From positions 1 to 58,441 of the forward strand of contig JAJUFH010000020.1 in NCBI GenBank assembly GCA_029266035.1: a stretch of 58,441 bases of DNA, read 5' to 3'. Position numbers and translations under genes: made by a program. The notes under the pieces are model-generated. The model was not told the origin of the DNA. It did no database searches and was given only the letters and a program-made list of their open reading frames with translations. Shown here piece by piece: positions 10,782 to 16,016 of this stretch (positions are counted from its first letter, which is position 1; every line of letters begins with the position of its first letter). The stretch is from Sinomicrobium sp. (lineage in GTDB: Bacteria > Bacteroidota > Bacteroidia > Flavobacteriales > Flavobacteriaceae).

Positions 10782-12947
10782 CTACACCTTAAAATCGGGC
10801 ATCTGTTGCTGCCACAGTTTGTAGTAATGCCCCTTGCTGTCGTACAACTGTCGGTGATTACCTTCCTCAATAACCTCACCCTTGTCTAGCACGACGATTT
10901 TATCGGCATTGACCACTGTACTCAAGCGATGTGCGATGACAACTATAGTCTTTTCTCGCTCTCGAAGTCCGGCTATCGTCTTTTGCACAAAACTTTCAGA
11001 GGTACTGTCTAGAGAAGAGGTAGCCTCGTCCAACACCAGTATTTCCGGCTCTTTGTACAAGGCTCTTGCGATAGCTATACGCTGTTTTTGTCCGCCCGAA
11101 AGTGCCGCTCCATTTTCTCCGAGATAGGTGGCAAAACCATTGGGCAGGTTTTCGATAAATGACAGTATCCCAATGCTTTTACAGATCTCCATAATCTTTT
11201 CCATATCCGGCTGAAATTCTCCTACGGCTATATTTTCGACCACATTACCTCCGAAAAGATCTATTTTTTGAGGCACTACCCCTACAATGTCTCTAAGGCT
11301 GGTATTTTCGATGTATTTCAAATCGTACTCGCCTATTGTAATCTTGCCTTTTTGTATGGGATATATGTTTTGCAACAGCGAAATAAGCGTAGATTTTCCC
11401 GAACCGCTCTCCCCTATTACTGCGGTAATTTTTCCTTTGGGAATATCGAGTGAAAAATCCTTGAATACCTCCACTCTTGTTCCATACCTAAAAAACACAT
11501 TTTTAAAAACTATATCGCCCGTTTTTTCTGCGTTGAGTTTTATTTTATCATCCTGTTCTTCTCTTTCCAAATCCATAATCTCAAACAGACGATCGGCTGC
11601 AATCCAGGCATTCTGTATCTGCTTGTTGGCGTCTACAAGTTGAGCCACCGGTCCTGTAAAATACCCGATAATTGCATAAAAAGAAAGTAATTCTCCAGGA
11701 GTGATTTCTCTGTCTATAACAAAATACGATCCACTCCACAGCAAAATAATAGTGAAGAGTTGGGATACAAAGGAGGAAGAAGTAGTCGAAAAAACTGTAT
11801 TGAGAGCCGATTTATAACCTACGTTTAGAAGGTTTATAAAGCGAGCTTCTGTTTTGATATTGGCAAAGGACTCCAATCCAAACCGCTTGATGGTACCTAC
11901 AGCGTTGAGCGATTCCACCAGCTGGCTTTCCAAGTCTGCAGCACGCTCCATCACTTTTCTTTCCGCCTTTTTATTCAGTCTGTTGGTCATCCAATATATA
12001 CCGATATACAAGGGAATAATAGCCAACATGATTAGAGCCAATTTCCAATAATAAAAAAACATCAACCCGAAAGAGAAAAGGAGGATAAGCACATTTACCG
12101 TGAGGCTAAGAGCAACCCCGTTGATAAAGGTTCGTATTTTTACAGCATCGTTTATTCTAGAGATGATTTCTCCTACTCTCATAGTATCGAAAAACTGCTG
12201 TGGCAATTTCAGTAAATGCTTGTAGTATCCGAGAATAAGGCGGGCGTCGATCTGCTGCCCGGTCTTGATGAGAAAAGTGTCTTTAAACACGCCTACCAAT
12301 ATTTGCAACAGCAATAGTATAAGCATAACCACACTGAGCAAATTGAGCAAGCGGGTATTTCCTCCGGTAAGCACGTAATCGGTAATCTTACCGAGGTAAA
12401 TAGATGTCGAAAAACCGAGTAAAGTAACTACAAGTGCTCCAAAAAATGCCTGGAGCAATACGAATCTGTGGGGACGAAGCAGAAACCAAAACCTCCTCAT
12501 CGAAGAGACTTTTTCATTGCCTTCGGAAAAACTGTCGTCGGGCATAAGCAACACCAATACCCCGGTCCATTCTTCCTTAAACTCCTCGTGGGTTTTCTTG
12601 TACATTTTTCCATCGCCCGGATCCATGATTAGGATGTGTTTTTTGGTCACCTCATAGATCACAACATAGTGATGAAGCACTTTTCTGACCACCACATGGG
12701 CAATAGCTGGTTTCGGTATTTTAAACAAGCTATCGATATCACCTCGCACTCCTTTGGCCTCAAAACCCAGTTTTTGAGCGGCTTCTACCAATCCGAGTAC
12801 ATTGGTTCCCTTCTTGTCGGTACTGGCGTATTGACGAATGCGAGCAATGGGAAGTTGAAGATTGTAATGCGCCGACACCGATGCCAAGCAGGCCGCTCCA
12901 CAATCTGTAATATCGTGTTGTTTTATTATCGTATTTTTCTTTGCCAT
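10782..12947 (-). CDS. ABC exporter with N-terminal C39 peptidase (double-glycine peptide transporter)
   Basis: The protein cleaves leader peptides after a Gly-Gly motif and exports the rest across the inner membrane. Residues 1-130 are a C39 cysteine protease: catalytic Cys16 in ITDCGAACL, His93 in LHHYVVIYE and Asp109 in MDPGDG. Residues 160-440 hold the six-helix ABC membrane domain. The C-terminal ATPase has Walker A GESGSGKST (near 515), the signature LSGGQKQRIAIARAL (near 615) and Walker B ILVLDEATSSLD (near 635). All catalytic residues are present. It is the obvious processing and export partner for the three GG-leader peptides upstream. A palindrome at 12987-13005 overlaps its presumed promoter, giving a 5' untranslated region of only about 16 bases. 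Confidence 0.95.
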   Translation of the reverse strand: MAKKNTIIKQHDITDCGAACLASVSAHYNLQLPIARIRQYASTDKKGTNVLGLVEAAQKLGFEAKGVRGDIDSLFKIPKPAIAHVVVRKVLHHYVVIYEVTKKHILIMDPGDGKMYKKTHEEFKEEWTGVLVLLMPDDSFSEGNEKVSSMRRFWFLLRPHRFVLLQAFFGALVVTLLGFSTSIYLGKITDYVLTGGNTRLLNLLSVVMLILLLLQILVGVFKDTFLIKTGQQIDARLILGYYKHLLKLPQQFFDTMRVGEIISRINDAVKIRTFINGVALSLTVNVLILLFSFGLMFFYYWKLALIMLAIIPLYIGIYWMTNRLNKKAERKVMERAADLESQLVESLNAVGTIKRFGLESFANIKTEARFINLLNVGYKSALNTVFSTTSSSFVSQLFTIILLWSGSYFVIDREITPGELLSFYAIIGYFTGPVAQLVDANKQIQNAWIAADRLFEIMDLEREEQDDKIKLNAEKTGDIVFKNVFFRYGTRVEVFKDFSLDIPKGKITAVIGESGSGKSTLISLLQNIYPIQKGKITIGEYDLKYIENTSLRDIVGVVPQKIDLFGGNVVENIAVGEFQPDMEKIMEICKSIGILSFIENLPNGFATYLGENGAALSGGQKQRIAIARALYKEPEILVLDEATSSLDSTSESFVQKTIAGLREREKTIVVIAHRLSTVVNADKIVVLDKGEVIEEGNHRQLYDSKGHYYKLWQQQMPDFKV

Positions 12948-12969: not shown

Positions 12970-13005
12970 GCAAAGTAATGGTCTACACTGCAAAAAACTT
13001 GCAGT
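12970..13005 (-). promoter_or_regulatory. Palindromic operator and promoter of the C39 exporter gene
   Basis: ACTGCA-N7-TGCAGT occupies 12987-13005. Nine bases further, in the direction of transcription, is TACTTTGC (12970-12977 on the minus strand), a near match to the -7 box. The same palindrome with the same nine-base spacing to a TAnnTT element occurs before peptide genes 2 and 3. Confidence 0.7.
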
Positions 13006-13144
13006 AAACGATACTATCACTCTGGTGTAGTTATTCCTTTACAAGGAGGTTTTTACAAAAATCCCCTCACTACAACAATAGAACAGTTCTTTTTATGACG
13101 ATAAAGATTTAAAAGTCATTTGTTTATATGATTTAAGGTATTAA

Positions 13145-13177
13145 AAAAGCTGTTTCCCCGATAGAGAAACAGCTTTT
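13145..13177 (-). terminator. Intrinsic terminator after peptide gene 1
   Basis: AAAAGCTGTTTC (13145-13156) pairs with GAAACAGCTTTT (13166-13177), a 12-bp perfect stem with a nine-base loop. On the minus strand the stem ends in TTTTTT. It lies 23 bases after the stop of peptide gene 1 and separates it from the exporter gene. Confidence 0.85.
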
Positions 13178-13199
13178 ATACACTTGATGGTTATGTTTC

Positions 13200-13409
13200 T
13201 TATTCTGCAGAAGCAGATATGGAAATACTATTCAACAAGTCGGAAACCAGTGAAACGGCTACAGTAACGGTACCGAGTACAAGCCCGAGTGCTCCCGCAA
13301 GAAAATCGCTAACACCTCCGATTCCGATTCCGATAGACAATCCGCCATTGGTGGTCTCCATTTCTGAAGCTTTCATTTCTTTAACTCCGTAGTTTTCCAG
13401 ATTTTTCAT
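13200..13409 (-). CDS. Double-glycine leader peptide 1 (candidate bacteriocin-like precursor)
   Basis: 69 residues. The leader MKNLENYGVKEMKASEME-TTNGG ends in Gly-Gly at about residue 24, the recognition form for C39 exporters. The mature part begins LSIGIGIGGVSDFLAG, continues with hydrophobic stretches and ends in a serine-rich tail (SISISASAE). Its core differs from peptides 2 and 3. The start at 13409 is chosen because the same MKNLxNYG start appears in all three paralogues; the in-frame ATG at 13451 is not conserved. No operator palindrome was found in front of this gene. Processing and activity are inferred, not shown. Confidence 0.8.
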   Translation of the reverse strand: MKNLENYGVKEMKASEMETTNGGLSIGIGIGGVSDFLAGALGLVLGTVTVAVSLVSDLLNSISISASAE

Positions 13410-13428
13410 AGTATAATTCATTAATTGG

Positions 13429-13518
13429 TTAATAAAAAACAGCTTGTTCACTTTTGCCTACAACACTGACAATGAGCAATAGCCAAAAAATCAGGATTGC
13501 GGCCGCTGCGACCGACAT
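13429..13518 (-). CDS. Possible 29-residue membrane peptide upstream of peptide gene 1
   Basis: A short frame opens at ATG 13518 and ends at TAA 13429-13431, 19 bases before the start of peptide gene 1. It encodes MSVAAAAILIFWLLLIVSV followed by VGKSEQAVFY: one strong transmembrane helix and a short charged tail. The frame is open further upstream to a TAG near 13600, but with no ATG. Small membrane proteins next to secreted toxin peptides are often immunity proteins, so it is listed as a candidate. No ribosome-binding signal was recognised, and it may be only an untranslated leader. Confidence 0.25.
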   Translation of the reverse strand: MSVAAAAILIFWLLLIVSVVGKSEQAVFY

Positions 13519-13564
13519 TCCTGCTTCCGTATTGCGCAATTTGTGGTAGTGCTTGGAATTGTAC

Positions 13565-13596
13565 AAAAAAGGGCGTTGTTTCCAACACCCTTTTTT
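13565..13596 (-). terminator. Intrinsic terminator after peptide gene 2
   Basis: AAAAAAGGGCGTTG (13565-13578) pairs with CAACACCCTTTTTT (13583-13596) with one G-T type mismatch. On the minus strand the GC-rich stem is followed by TTTTTTG. It begins 8 bases after the stop of peptide gene 2 and would uncouple peptide gene 1 from it. Confidence 0.8.
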
Positions 13597-13603
13597 GTGC
13601 TAT

Positions 13604-13798
13604 TTACAGGTCTCCGAGGAGTCCACCAAGTAGTCCGCCAACAAGGCCTACAACTACTCCAACGATTCCGGTTACGGTACCTACAATACCTGTTACCAAA
13701 TCGAGTACCCCGTCCAGACCTCCGAGAAGTCCGCCATTGGTTTCGTTCATTTCTTTTGCATTCAATTCCTGAACACCATAGTTTTTCAGATTTTTCAT
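13604..13798 (-). CDS. Double-glycine leader peptide 2 (glycine-zipper core)
   Basis: 64 residues. The leader MKNLKNYGVQELNAKEMN-ETNGG is almost identical to that of peptide 3 and ends in Gly-Gly at residue 23. The mature core starts LLGGLDGVLDLVTG and then places Gly at alternating intervals of 3 and 4 residues between Val/Ile/Leu pairs (TGIVGTVTGIVGVVVG...), ending GGLLGDL. This spacing puts all glycines on one face of a helix, as in glycine-zipper membrane peptides. It has its own operator (13950-13968) and terminator. Start at 13798 follows the paralogues; the ATG at 13822 is not conserved. Function as bacteriocin or signal is inferred. Confidence 0.85.
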   Translation of the reverse strand: MKNLKNYGVQELNAKEMNETNGGLLGGLDGVLDLVTGIVGTVTGIVGVVVGLVGGLLGGLLGDL

Positions 13799-13847
13799 GA
13801 TAAATAAAATTAGGTTAAACAATATTCATTTTTGGTCAATCTGATCG

Positions 13848-13869
13848 CCGGAATTTTGTAATCTTCCGG
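13848..13869 (-). other. Small hairpin in the leader RNA of peptide gene 2
   Basis: CCGGAA (13848-13853) pairs with TTCCGG (13864-13869). It lies between the presumed transcription start (near 13926) and the start codon at 13798, in an untranslated leader of about 130 bases that holds no other obvious element. Confidence 0.35.
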
Positions 13870-13932
13870 GATAGGGGGTGGAAAGGTGTTTGGAAAGGTC
13901 TGCATCAACACGATATCCGTATTAAGCGAGCA

Positions 13933-13968
13933 CTAATTTAGCAGTATTCACTGCACAAACCTTGCAGT
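13933..13968 (-). promoter_or_regulatory. Palindromic operator and promoter of peptide gene 2
   Basis: ACTGCA-N7-TGCAGT at 13950-13968, then nine bases, then TAAATTAG (13933-13940, minus strand), one base off the -7 consensus TAnnTTTG. An additional half-site GCAGT lies at 13941-13945 on the plus strand, so this copy has three half-sites. No TTG is present at the -33 distance; the palindrome occupies that place. Confidence 0.75.
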
Positions 13969-13986
13969 TTGGTGTGTTTTTTGACA

Positions 13987-14023
13987 AAAAAAACCGGCCT
14001 CTTTATACAACAGGCCGGTTTTT
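13987..14023 (-). terminator. Intrinsic terminator after peptide gene 3
   Basis: AAAACCGGCCT and AGGCCGGTTTT form a GC-rich 11- to 12-bp stem with an 11-base loop; on the minus strand it ends in a run of eight T. It begins 15 bases past the stop of peptide gene 3 and lies just upstream of the operator of peptide gene 2. Confidence 0.88.
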
Positions 14024-14037
14024 GTACCAATATCGGC

Positions 14038-14232
14038 TTATAATCCTCCGAGAAGGCTTCCGAGAAGTCCGGTAACAACGTTTACTACGCTACCTACAAC
14101 ACCTACAACGGTGTTTACTACTCCGGTTACCAAGTCGAGAACTCCGTCCAAACCTCCGAGAAGTCCGCCGTTAGTTTCGTTCATTTCTTGTGCGTTCAAT
14201 TCCTGAACTCCGTAGTTTTCTAGATTTTTCAT
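14038..14232 (-). CDS. Double-glycine leader peptide 3 (glycine-zipper core)
   Basis: 64 residues, the closest relative of peptide 2. The leader MKNLENYGVQELNAQEMN-ETNGG ends in Gly-Gly at residue 23. The core starts LLGGLDGVLDLVTG, identical to peptide 2, and then runs VVNTVVGVVGSVVNVVTG, ending LLGSLLGGL. Compared with peptide 2 some glycines are replaced by Asn, Thr or Ser, but the 3-4 spacing of small residues is kept, which suggests selection on helix packing. Start is ATG 14232, the only Met in frame before the leader. Own operator (14370-14388) and terminator. Confidence 0.87.
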   Translation of the reverse strand: MKNLENYGVQELNAQEMNETNGGLLGGLDGVLDLVTGVVNTVVGVVGSVVNVVTGLLGSLLGGL

Positions 14233-14317
14233 GATTGTGATTTAATTAAGTTATACAAAAGTTTAGATTTTTAGAAAACAGTTATGCAAGCGGCTTAAAC
14301 AGCGAACTCACAACGCT

Positions 14318-14347
14318 CAAAACACAGAAAACTTCTATTGTGTTTTG
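14318..14347 (-). other. Hairpin at the 5' end of the peptide gene 3 transcript
   Basis: CAAAACACA (14318-14326) pairs with TGTGTTTTG (14339-14347) around a 12-base loop. The presumed transcription start is close to 14346, so this stem would form the very 5' end of the mRNA, about 115 bases ahead of the start codon. Confidence 0.4.
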
Positions 14348-14352
14348 TTTTG

Positions 14353-14388
14353 CTAAGGTAACCGCGCTCACTGCACAAACCTTGCAGT
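14353..14388 (-). promoter_or_regulatory. Palindromic operator and promoter of peptide gene 3
   Basis: ACTGCA-N7-TGCAGT at 14370-14388 with the same spacer (CAAACCT on the plus strand) as the copy at 13950. Nine bases on is TACCTTAG (14353-14360, minus strand), a -7 box variant. The only sequence kept between this region and the peptide 2 promoter is the palindrome and the box, which argues that both are functional. Confidence 0.78.
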
Positions 14389-14488: not shown

Positions 14489-14812
14489 TTAAACAAGTTC
14501 AAACAAATTGAATTTTGGAGGGTCGCAAGGCAGAAAATAGCTTCCTCCAAAAATTTCGGTAAGCTCATTATCTCTGAGTACTCTTACCGAAACGGTGACC
14601 TTGAGATCAAAATCGTCTTCGTAAAAATAGGTTTTGTGAACTCGGCTATAGGAAACGGGAGCCTCTATATCCTTCAGTTGTTCTATCAACTGGTACACTT
14701 TTCGCTCACTGACTTGCATTAAGCGCGCAAGTTGTGTCGGCGATCCTGTAGCTTCTCTCGCTATCAATTGATGCAATTGTTGCAAGCGCTCGAGATTTTT
14801 TAAATTCTTCAT
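14489..14812 (-). CDS. Small HTH-domain protein of the peptide locus
   Basis: 107 residues. Residues 1-60 form a winged-helix type HTH of the HTH_11/DeoR-like kind (LERLQQLHQLIAREATGSPTQ, then LARLMQVSERKVYQLIEQLK as the recognition region). The rest (YSRVHKTYFYEDDF, DNELTEIFGG) looks like a small C-terminal domain. I recall similar proteins next to GG-leader peptides in other flavobacteria, so a role in controlling the peptides is likely but inferred. It begins 43 bases after the HlyD stop and is probably co-transcribed with it. No partner two-component system is present. Confidence 0.78.
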   Translation of the reverse strand: MKNLKNLERLQQLHQLIAREATGSPTQLARLMQVSERKVYQLIEQLKDIEAPVSYSRVHKTYFYEDDFDLKVTVSVRVLRDNELTEIFGGSYFLPCDPPKFNLFELV

Positions 14813-14855: not shown

Positions 14856-16016
14856 TCAGTTGTTTGTCAAAGCCCTGGATGGATTTAGCCAATCATCCAC
14901 TTTATCGTATAGCAGATCGAAAAGCGATCTTTCCGTAAGTTTAAAATTTGCGGTCAGGGTCATTCCTTTACCCAGATTTCCCCTGAAACCGTTTTTTAGT
15001 TGAAGGTATTGTTCATTAATGCTGCATCTGACCTTAAAGGCCGCTGTTTCTTCATCTATATTTTCTATATCGTTCCCTATACTTACAATCTGTCCGGTAG
15101 CAAAGCCCCACTGATTGTAATTGAAGGCATCTATCTGATAGGTGACAGTTTGCGATTCTCTCACCAATCCTATGTCGGAGGGTGCTATATAACACTCTAT
15201 CAGCAAACCTGTATCCGGTGAAATCTCTCCGATATTTACCCCGGAGTTTATGTAGCCTCCTTCTTCTACTCCCGCCACGCGCAACAGCGTGCCCGACACA
15301 GGAGCGGTGAGCACATAATTCTTGTCGTTGGAAGCGTACTGATTGTAATCAGAACCCAACTCTTTAAGGGTATTTACAAGAGAGGTGTGCTCCGATTGCC
15401 ACTGGTAACGCTGCTGTGTTTTATAGCCTTGAAGATCACTCTTCGCCATATCGTATTCCAGTTTCTTGGTCTCAAACTCGGCATTGGAAATCACCTTTCG
15501 GTCGTGTAACCTCTTGTGCCGTTCAAAATCCCTTCGGGTAGTTTCGAGTCGCGTTTCCAGCTCATTTATCTTTTGCCTGTACTCCATATAACTGGCCTTG
15601 TACTTTGCAGAGCTAAGTCTGGATACCGCGATATTCCCTCCTCCAGACAGCAGTGAAAGATCGTGTACAAAATTGCGATTGTCTCTGATTTGCTGACGGT
15701 ACAACGACATTTTATCATCTATCTGCTCACTGTTGAGAACGAGCAAGGTGTCGCCCTTTTCCACTCGCTGGTTGTTCGCCATATTTTTGAAAGTGACCTT
15801 TCCCGAATTGATGAGAGTAAGCTGAGTTCGCTCTATTTCCGGTTTGATAATTCCTCTCGAAGTAGTGTACACATCCACATATATAAATGGAAGTGACAAC
15901 AGAAATCCCAAAATACTCAACAGTATCAAGCCATAAATCAATTTGCTGCGGTTTTGCAGTCTAAAATGATGGGCTTCTACAGTGCTGTCGATTATTTCCT
16001 TTGGAAAGATCTGCAT
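14856..16016 (-). CDS. HlyD-family membrane fusion protein
   Basis: Periplasmic adaptor that links an inner-membrane exporter to an outer-membrane channel. One transmembrane helix lies near residues 28-50 (LIYGLILLSILGFLLSLPFIY). It is followed by a split lipoyl/barrel-sandwich domain (RVEKGDTLLVLNSEQIDD at about 85 and NYVLTAPVSGTLLRVAG at about 235), a long coiled coil between them (MEYRQKINELETRLETTRRD) and a beta-barrel part. Start at 16016 (MQIFPKEIID) is favoured because the upstream extension to 16121 is Cys- and Lys-rich and unlike the family. It should pair with the C39 exporter; no TolC-type gene is in the window. Confidence 0.9.
   Translation of the reverse strand: MQIFPKEIIDSTVEAHHFRLQNRSKLIYGLILLSILGFLLSLPFIYVDVYTTSRGIIKPEIERTQLTLINSGKVTFKNMANNQRVEKGDTLLVLNSEQIDDKMSLYRQQIRDNRNFVHDLSLLSGGGNIAVSRLSSAKYKASYMEYRQKINELETRLETTRRDFERHKRLHDRKVISNAEFETKKLEYDMAKSDLQGYKTQQRYQWQSEHTSLVNTLKELGSDYNQYASNDKNYVLTAPVSGTLLRVAGVEEGGYINSGVNIGEISPDTGLLIECYIAPSDIGLVRESQTVTYQIDAFNYNQWGFATGQIVSIGNDIENIDEETAAFKVRCSINEQYLQLKNGFRGNLGKGMTLTANFKLTERSLFDLLYDKVDDWLNPSRALTNN

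What the first reader, a model, noticed from the sequence alone, without database searches (positions are those of the whole stretch)
12970..14388. Three copies of a perfect palindrome ACTGCA-N7-TGCAGT at fixed distance from a -7 box
The palindrome is at 12987-13005 (exporter), 13950-13968 (peptide 2) and 14370-14388 (peptide 3). In all three exactly nine bases separate it from a TAnnTT element in the direction of transcription (TACTTTGC, TAAATTAG, TACCTTAG). It takes the place of the missing -33 TTG, which suggests an activator site or a site for an alternative sigma factor. Surrounding sequence is not conserved, so the match is not from recent duplication alone. It would co-regulate exporter and two peptides.
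Basis: seen in the sequence. Interest (0 to 1): 0.85.

Follow-up and report, generated by a model that had tools for sequence, protein, structure and literature searches.

The report
Shared switch for peptide-export genes
Three identical DNA docking sites in front of a peptide exporter and two secreted-peptide genes are very probably where a small neighbouring regulator protein binds to control them together, and the same regulator-and-site pair recurs, with matched changes in both partners, in related bacteria.

Summary
It is a real regulatory element. In six genomes of the genus (Sinomicrobium, own included), TGCA-N7-TGCA-N11-TAnnTT has 38 matches: 25 in this cluster, 5 before orphan double-glycine peptide genes, 8 elsewhere. 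In 58 loci with homologues of the HTH protein at 14489-14812, that spacer is 11 in 22 loci and never 2-10 or 12-20; 36 loci have no exact site. An arm-blind scan of 78 HTH loci gives 28 at that spacing and at most 3 at any other. Where a palindrome is found, its arms follow the HTH recognition helix: Arg37 with TGCA (22 of 23), Ser37 with TCCA or TCTA (6 of 6). So the palindrome is very probably the operator of that winged-helix-like protein. Rigid spacing and off-consensus -7 boxes favour an activator near -31; activation is inferred. A sigma factor reading the palindrome is unlikely. Boldest reading: the regulator's tail (LRDNELTEIFGG) imitates an export leader.

The parts
12987..13005 (-). 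palindrome ACTGCA-N7-TGCAGT of the exporter promoter
   Evidence: a site stands before the exporter in all 6 genomes of the genus
12970..12977 (-). -7 box TACTTTGC of the exporter (TAnnTTGY form), nine bases from the palindrome
13950..13968 (-). palindrome of peptide 2
13933..13940 (-). -7 box TAAATTAG of peptide 2
14370..14388 (-). palindrome of peptide 3
14353..14360 (-). -7 box TACCTTAG of peptide 3
14489..14812 (-). 107-aa HTH protein, predicted winged helix, proposed reader of the palindrome (recognition-helix residues S35 E36 R37 K38)
   Evidence: one match in the genome at E up to 0.01; co-occurrence and co-variation with the site; model pLDDT 83
14543..14578 (-). HTH residues 79-90 LRDNELTEIFGG, leader-like C-terminal motif
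   Evidence: sequence; (consensus LSxxELxxIxGG recalled)
10782..12947 (-). C39-peptidase ABC exporter (PCAT, TIGR01193)
   Evidence: of 4 matches in this genome at E up to 1e-50 the other 3 begin at query residue 149 or later, beyond the C39 domain
14038..14232 (-). double-glycine peptide 3 (64 aa)
13604..13798 (-). double-glycine peptide 2 (64 aa)
13200..13412 (-). double-glycine peptide 1 (70 aa), without its own site here
14856..16016 (-). HlyD-type adaptor, upstream of the HTH gene, no site of its own
14318..14347 (-). possible stem-loop at the 5' end of the peptide 3 transcript (CAAAACACA..TGTGTTTTG)
   Evidence: not significant by itself (p 0.165 by stem length, z -0.7)

Best explanation
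The palindromes are operator sites of the small winged-helix-like protein encoded next to them (14489-14812). A dimer binds two TGCA half-sites whose centre lies about 31 bp before the transcription start, just upstream of a sub-optimal -7 box, and recruits RNA polymerase, so that the exporter and the double-glycine peptides are switched on together. Shown by comparative sequence analysis: the sites, their rigid geometry, their concentration at peptide and exporter genes in this genus, and their co-occurrence and co-variation with the HTH protein. Inferred: physical binding, dimer, activation rather than repression, and the inducing signal (unknown).
For: Sites: 3 of 3 exact palindromes of the genome are here. 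In 6 genomes of the genus 38 matches with the -7 box, reversed control 1: 25 in the cluster and 5 before orphan GG-peptide genes. Geometry: in 58 distinct HTH loci the spacer to TAnnTT is 11 in 22 loci, 0 at 2-10 and 12-20, upstream control 0 at 11, and the gap between arms is 7; with one arm mismatch 31 of 58 at 11. Arm-blind scan of 78 loci: 28 at spacer 11 against at most 3 at any other spacer from 4 to 19. Reader: among 199 family genomes, 7 of the 15 with a site have the HTH against 22 of the 184 without; in 6 of those 7 a site lies beside the HTH gene. Of the 22 HTH loci with an exact site 18 have a GG peptide by my detector, of the 36 without only 8. Co-variation, among loci with a palindrome: Arg37 helices with TGCA in 22 of 23, Ser37 helices with TCCA or TCTA in 6 of 6, Fisher p 1.5e-5; TCCA is scattered over the HTH tree (4 changes in the best tree, at least 3 forced). 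Activator: none of the 25 cluster sites of the genus has the TTTG ending (TTAG 18, TTGC 6, TTCG 1), whereas TAnnTTTG is enriched before other genes of the window (12 against 2.7 expected); in the TGCA scan no site has spacer 10 or 12.
Against: No binding or expression data. 36 of 58 HTH loci show no exact site and 27 none with one mismatch. The three forced changes on the tree could be one gain and two losses, and one TCCA row (L194) has a very long branch. One Arg37 locus (L094) gave another arm, probably by chance; at least five proteins with Ser at that place (L152, L179, L185, L191, L192, by eye) had no palindrome in the arm-blind scan. The best fold matches include BirA and NiaR, which are repressors (recalled). 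A few distant loci have one base more in the spacer (L179, L190). Of the 8 matches of the genus outside cluster and orphan peptides I saw the surroundings of one only (L047, no GG peptide).
Confidence: 0.72

Rival explanations
1. Same operator and same reader, but the HTH protein is a repressor that covers the upstream promoter half and keeps the cluster off until a signal releases it.
For: The site would lie at about -40 to -22, where a repressor would block polymerase; the best fold matches include BirA and NiaR, which are repressors (recalled).
Against: Spacing identical to the base pair in the main set across genera is more than a repressor needs; -7 boxes are off-consensus; no site before hlyD-HTH in the window, so no sign of autoregulation through this site.
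Confidence: 0.19
2. Another dimeric regulator reads the palindrome and the HTH gene is only a neighbour.
For: A dyad of this size would suit many dimeric regulators (recalled).
Against: Arm classes follow HTH residue 37 in 28 of 29 classifiable loci, and the classes are scattered over the HTH tree; HTH enriched in genomes with sites.
Confidence: 0.05
3. The palindrome is the upstream element of an alternative sigma factor.
For: -7 boxes deviate from TAnnTTTG in the genus (0 of 25); the exporter box fits the TAnnTTGY motif SM5 of F. psychrophilum, whose authors think SM4-6 most likely under alternative sigma factors (passages of PMC9723704).
Against: The element is two-fold symmetric and its arms change symmetrically with the helix of a neighbouring HTH protein; in other genera the same geometry ends in TTTG (16 of 54 sites in all).
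Confidence: 0.03
4. The copies are left over from duplication of peptide genes, with no function.
For: Peptides 2 and 3 are 81% identical.
Against: The exporter has a site in all 6 genomes of the genus; the same geometry recurs in other genera and families, also with other arms.
Confidence: 0.01

Closest known systems
Bacteriocin regulons of lactic acid bacteria (PlnC/PlnD)
   Same: Regulators bind shared DNA sites to control bacteriocin production (start of the abstract of PMC2714321, seen in the listing).
   Different: There the readers are response regulators on DNA repeats in a quorum-sensing pathway; here a small HTH protein and a gap-7 palindrome. I noticed no kinase or receptor in the cluster, but did not search for one.
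Bacteroidetocin loci
   Same: Bacteroidetes GG-leader peptide with an ABC exporter that carries a double-glycine peptidase (passages of PMC6671954).
   Different: Bacteroidetocins carry cysteines and have a thiol oxidoreductase gene beside them; the window peptides have no cysteine. None of the 12 passages shown (of 19) describes a regulator.
Winged-helix regulators such as BirA and NiaR
   Same: Predicted helix-turn-helix and wing.
   Different: Only 107 aa, no separate ligand domain in the model; Pfam and NCBIfam matches below cut-off; no PDB sequence match; best Foldseek E 0.019.
Flavobacterial promoters with TAnnTTTG
   Same: TAnnTT core.
   Different: T-6, nearly invariant in F. johnsoniae, is A or G in 24 of the 25 cluster sites; the -33 place is taken by the palindrome.

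Membership tests
Peptide cleavage/export ABC transporters (TIGR01193, PCAT) | score above curated cut-off; C39, membrane and ATPase domains | tested here: met
   552.6 bits against 523.85; PF03412, PF00664, PF00005 above cut-off
Double-glycine (GG) leader peptides | short ORF with a leader ending in GG near a PCAT | tested here: met
   three ORFs with NGG leaders, by eye; no Pfam or NCBIfam family reaches its cut-off
Bacteroidetocins | at least two cysteines in the peptide | tested here: not met
   no Cys in the three peptides; feature taken from PMC6671954 passages
Bacteroidetocins | thiol oxidoreductase gene alongside | not tested
   not searched for
Pfam HTH_11 / HTH_29 | score above gathering cut-off | tested here: not met
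   18.4 against 25; 19.8 against 28.1
Winged-helix fold | structural match | tested here: inconclusive
   model pLDDT 83 with three helices and beta strands; best Foldseek E 0.019, none at or below 0.001
Primary-sigma (TTTG/TAnnTTTG) promoter | TAnnTTTG -7 box | tested here: not met
   0 of 25 cluster sites in the genus; TAnnTT itself was part of the search pattern
Primary-sigma (TTTG/TAnnTTTG) promoter | TTTG near -33 | tested here: not met
   nearest TTG ends 15, 15 and 13 nt before TA at the three sites (read)
Transcription factor-operator pair | physical binding | not testable with these tools
   only co-occurrence and co-variation

The most novel reading that the evidence does not exclude
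The regulator carries, after its winged helix, an imitation of the export leader of its own targets. In the window it is LRDNELTEIFGG|SYF, against the recalled consensus LSxxELxxIxGG of C39 substrates. The idle exporter could bind or cut the regulator through this tail and let it go when real peptides fill the peptidase, coupling transcription to export capacity. The pattern [ILVM]x3[EDQK]x3[ILV]x[GA]G is in 27 of 35 HTH proteins with a GG peptide nearby and in 4 of 30 without; a bare GG is less telling, 25 of 35 against 10 of 30.
Probability: 0.27. Interest if true: 0.87.

Novelty: new variant of a known kind. Interest (0 to 1): 0.66.

Why it matters
It names a likely reader, a binding site and a first specificity rule (HTH residue 37, perhaps also 36, against half-site bases 2-3) for the control of exported peptides in a phylum where I found no description of such control in the papers that I could search (listings). 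The motif can be used to find orphan GG peptides far from any exporter: 5 turned up that way here. If the leader-like tail is functional, it would be a simple route from export capacity to transcription.

Tried and rejected
Alternative sigma factor as reader of the palindrome: rejected on symmetry and co-variation. Pure duplication remnant: rejected. A looser pattern without the -7 box matches 93 times in the six genomes against 27 for its reversed control; of 9 distal matches fetched from it, 5 have the -7 box and stand before GG peptides, L047 has the -7 pattern but no GG peptide, and L042, L046 and L048 have neither. A class-wide search with a strict TGCA pattern hits 10 of 395 genomes, 8 of them outside the family; I did not look at the surroundings of those 8. 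The HTH profile itself reaches 42 of 395. Rfam: no family in seven loci (five congener clusters, L155, L158; the window was not searched), and in five loci of the G164 repeats one sub-threshold match. PDB sequence search: 0 matches. A scan of viral contigs gave 23 stretches, not examined. The MAFFT alignment of 5' stem-loops was too poor to count pairs. Stem length was notable (p at or below 0.02) in 6 of 54 sites; 11 of 54 had folding z below -2.

Dropped before counts: 8 of 66 HTH loci as near-duplicates; second HTH copies in some genomes, one decayed copy (L107) and re-fetched copies of the window and of the congeners were not entered. L151 and L152 were added. In one search the tree leaves out L102 (no helix in its open frame) and L094 (arm AATG, kept in the Fisher table as the one exception). 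L104 (arm TCTC, box CATCTTTA) came from a relaxed scan: it is in the tree, not in the table. The two Fisher tables were typed by hand; the table by genera counts unnamed assemblies as separate genera. In one search the wider region (to 2000) gives 30 loci at spacer 11 and up to 6 elsewhere, and the gap scan there has 30 at gap 7 and up to 10 elsewhere (gap 12). The tail patterns were written after seeing the sequences and are not corrected for relatedness; proteins under 85 aa were left out, so 65 of 78 were used; the GG-peptide detector is a regular expression with misses and false hits.

Full report
What is there. On the minus strand of the window lie, in order of transcription, a HlyD-type adaptor (16016-14856), a 107-aa HTH protein (14812-14489), three double-glycine peptides (14232-14038, 13798-13604, 13412-13200) and a C39-peptidase ABC exporter (12947-10782). 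The palindrome ACTGCA-N7-TGCAGT stands before peptide 3, peptide 2 and the exporter, nine bases from a TAnnTT box each time. It occurs at no other place in the 3.05 Mb genome, and the reversed pattern does not occur. The exporter is the only one of four matching ABC proteins in this genome (E up to 1e-50) whose match reaches the C39 part, and the HTH protein has one match, itself.

Footprint in the genus. Five congeneric genomes carry the same cluster with the exporter 90-94% identical. The six genomes have 3 to 6 sites each in the cluster, one of them always before the exporter. Over all six, TGCA-N7-TGCA-N11-TAnnTT has 38 matches, reversed control 1: 25 in the clusters, 5 elsewhere before genes for orphan peptides with GG leaders (loci L040, L041, L043, L044, L045), and 8 others. 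Of those 8 I saw the surroundings of one (L047), which has no GG peptide; the other 7 were not fetched.

Footprint in the family and its reader. In 199 family genomes a pattern with a partly fixed centre hits 15 and the HTH profile hits 29. Seven of the 15 have the HTH against 22 of the other 184. In six of the seven a site lies beside the HTH gene with GG peptides after it; in the seventh (G124) it does not. After the single sites of the eight genomes without HTH I saw no GG peptide; these are probably chance.

Geometry. I collected HTH loci from this family sample and from named genomes, 58 after removing near-duplicates. Downstream of the HTH start the spacer between TGCA-N7-TGCA and TAnnTT is 11 in 22 loci and absent at 2-10 and 12-20; the upstream control has none at 11; the gap between arms is 7 in 22 loci, with single loci at 14, 16 and 21. 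Allowing one arm mismatch gives 31 of 58 at 11, two at 14 and none at the other spacers from 6 to 16. Misses are therefore 36 and 27 of 58. By my detector 18 of the 22 loci with an exact site have a GG peptide, and 8 of the 36 without. A scan that does not fix the arm sequence, over 78 loci with distant homologues from the class included, finds a palindrome with gap 7 and spacer 11 in 28 loci within 900 bases, against 0 to 3 at each other spacer from 4 to 19.

Arms change with the helix. In the 30 loci of the wider arm-blind scan the protein has Arg at position 37 in 23 and Ser in 6; one (L102) cannot be classified. With Arg37 the arm is TGCA in 22 of 23. With Ser37 it is never TGCA: TCCA in four (helices SRSQ, SRSQ, SKSQ, SRSC) and TCTA in two paralogues of one genome (CESH, CESQ). 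Fisher p is 1.5e-5 by loci and 8e-4 by genera. On the HTH tree the label TCCA needs 4 changes, at least 3 forced by well-supported branches, no fewer than in shuffles; so it is scattered and not one inherited block, though three changes could be one gain and two losses, and L194 sits on a very long branch. A further locus (L104, helix SQAT) has ACTCTC-N7-GAGAGT with the box CATCTTTA, found by a relaxed scan. Several proteins with Ser at that place had no palindrome in the scan. The matched change is the strongest evidence that the HTH protein reads the palindrome.

Activator or repressor. With the published numbering of the -7 box (T-12 to G-5; PMC6847099 passages) the palindrome covers -40 to -22, centre -31. 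The nearest TTG ends 15, 15 and 13 nt before TA at the three sites (read). I do not lean on the missing -33 box: motifs at -18 and -28 are more pronounced than any near -33 in F. johnsoniae, and a native F. columnare promoter lacks it (PMC2483708 passages). Two facts favour activation: the spacing does not vary by one base in the main set, and the -7 boxes are off-consensus. In the 25 cluster sites of the genus none ends in TTTG (18 TTAG, 6 TTGC, 1 TTCG), while TAnnTTTG is 12 against 2.7 expected in 33 upstream regions of the window and TAnnTTAG is 2 against 1.8. Exceptions to the spacing exist among distant homologues (L179, L190). The exporter boxes (TACTTTGC, TATTTTGC) fit the TAnnTTGY motif SM5 of F. 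psychrophilum (PMC9723704 passages), so exporter and peptides may differ in basal sigma use.

The leader-like tail. The HTH protein ends in a predicted beta hairpin (strands 74-80 and 83-90) whose last strand reads ELTEIFGG. The segment L79-G90 fits the double-glycine leader consensus that I recall from the PCAT literature. A loose form of the pattern is in 27 of 35 HTH proteins with a GG peptide nearby and in 4 of 30 without; a bare GG is in 25 of 35 and 10 of 30; a strict form is in 16 of 35 and 1 of 30. Without the five congeners the loose counts are 22 of 30 and 4 of 30. Against it: the patterns were chosen after seeing the data, relatedness is not corrected for, and a strand is not the helix expected of a bound leader (recalled). 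I keep it as the boldest reading.

Novelty. Eight literature searches listed no paper whose title or abstract start describes this regulator or motif; I saw passages of four papers and no whole paper. The library lacks most subscription journals, so a description elsewhere is possible.

Noticed in passing
G164 (unnamed Flavobacteriaceae genome), e.g. L203:414-1300, L196, L073, L201: About 33 dispersed units (33 pattern matches; 30 units folded) mostly join the regulator palindrome and TAnnTT box to an immediate G/C-rich hairpin (GGGGTTaagAACCCC and variants that look compensatory by eye), partly in an array with spacings near 80 nt. Of the dispersed units checked none lies before a GG peptide. 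They could be tiny RNA units, decoys for the regulator or a REP-like repeat.
   Followed up: partly
window 14318-14347; L036, L037, L081, L113, L114, L120, L122: Many peptide transcripts, but not the exporter's, would begin with a stem-loop (TATCAAAACA..TGTTTTGATA or CAAAACA..TGTTTTG) whose loop often holds GTGCAC or GTGCGC. No Rfam match in the congener clusters and two further ones. Stem statistics are weak.
   Followed up: partly
L040, L041, L043, L044, L045: Orphan double-glycine peptide genes away from the exporter cluster, each with its own regulator site.
   Followed up: partly
L036:3552, L037, L038, L081, L093, L113: In several genomes the first site lies inside or across the 3' end of the HTH reading frame, so that the operator also encodes the protein's last residues.
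   Followed up: no
L085, L087, L098, L131, L140: HTH genes beside another short peptide type (..RYEMGWLKGGEVGASANSDGNIKVEAKVKF in L085); exact sites in L085, L087 and L131, a one-mismatch site in L098, none in L140.
   Followed up: no
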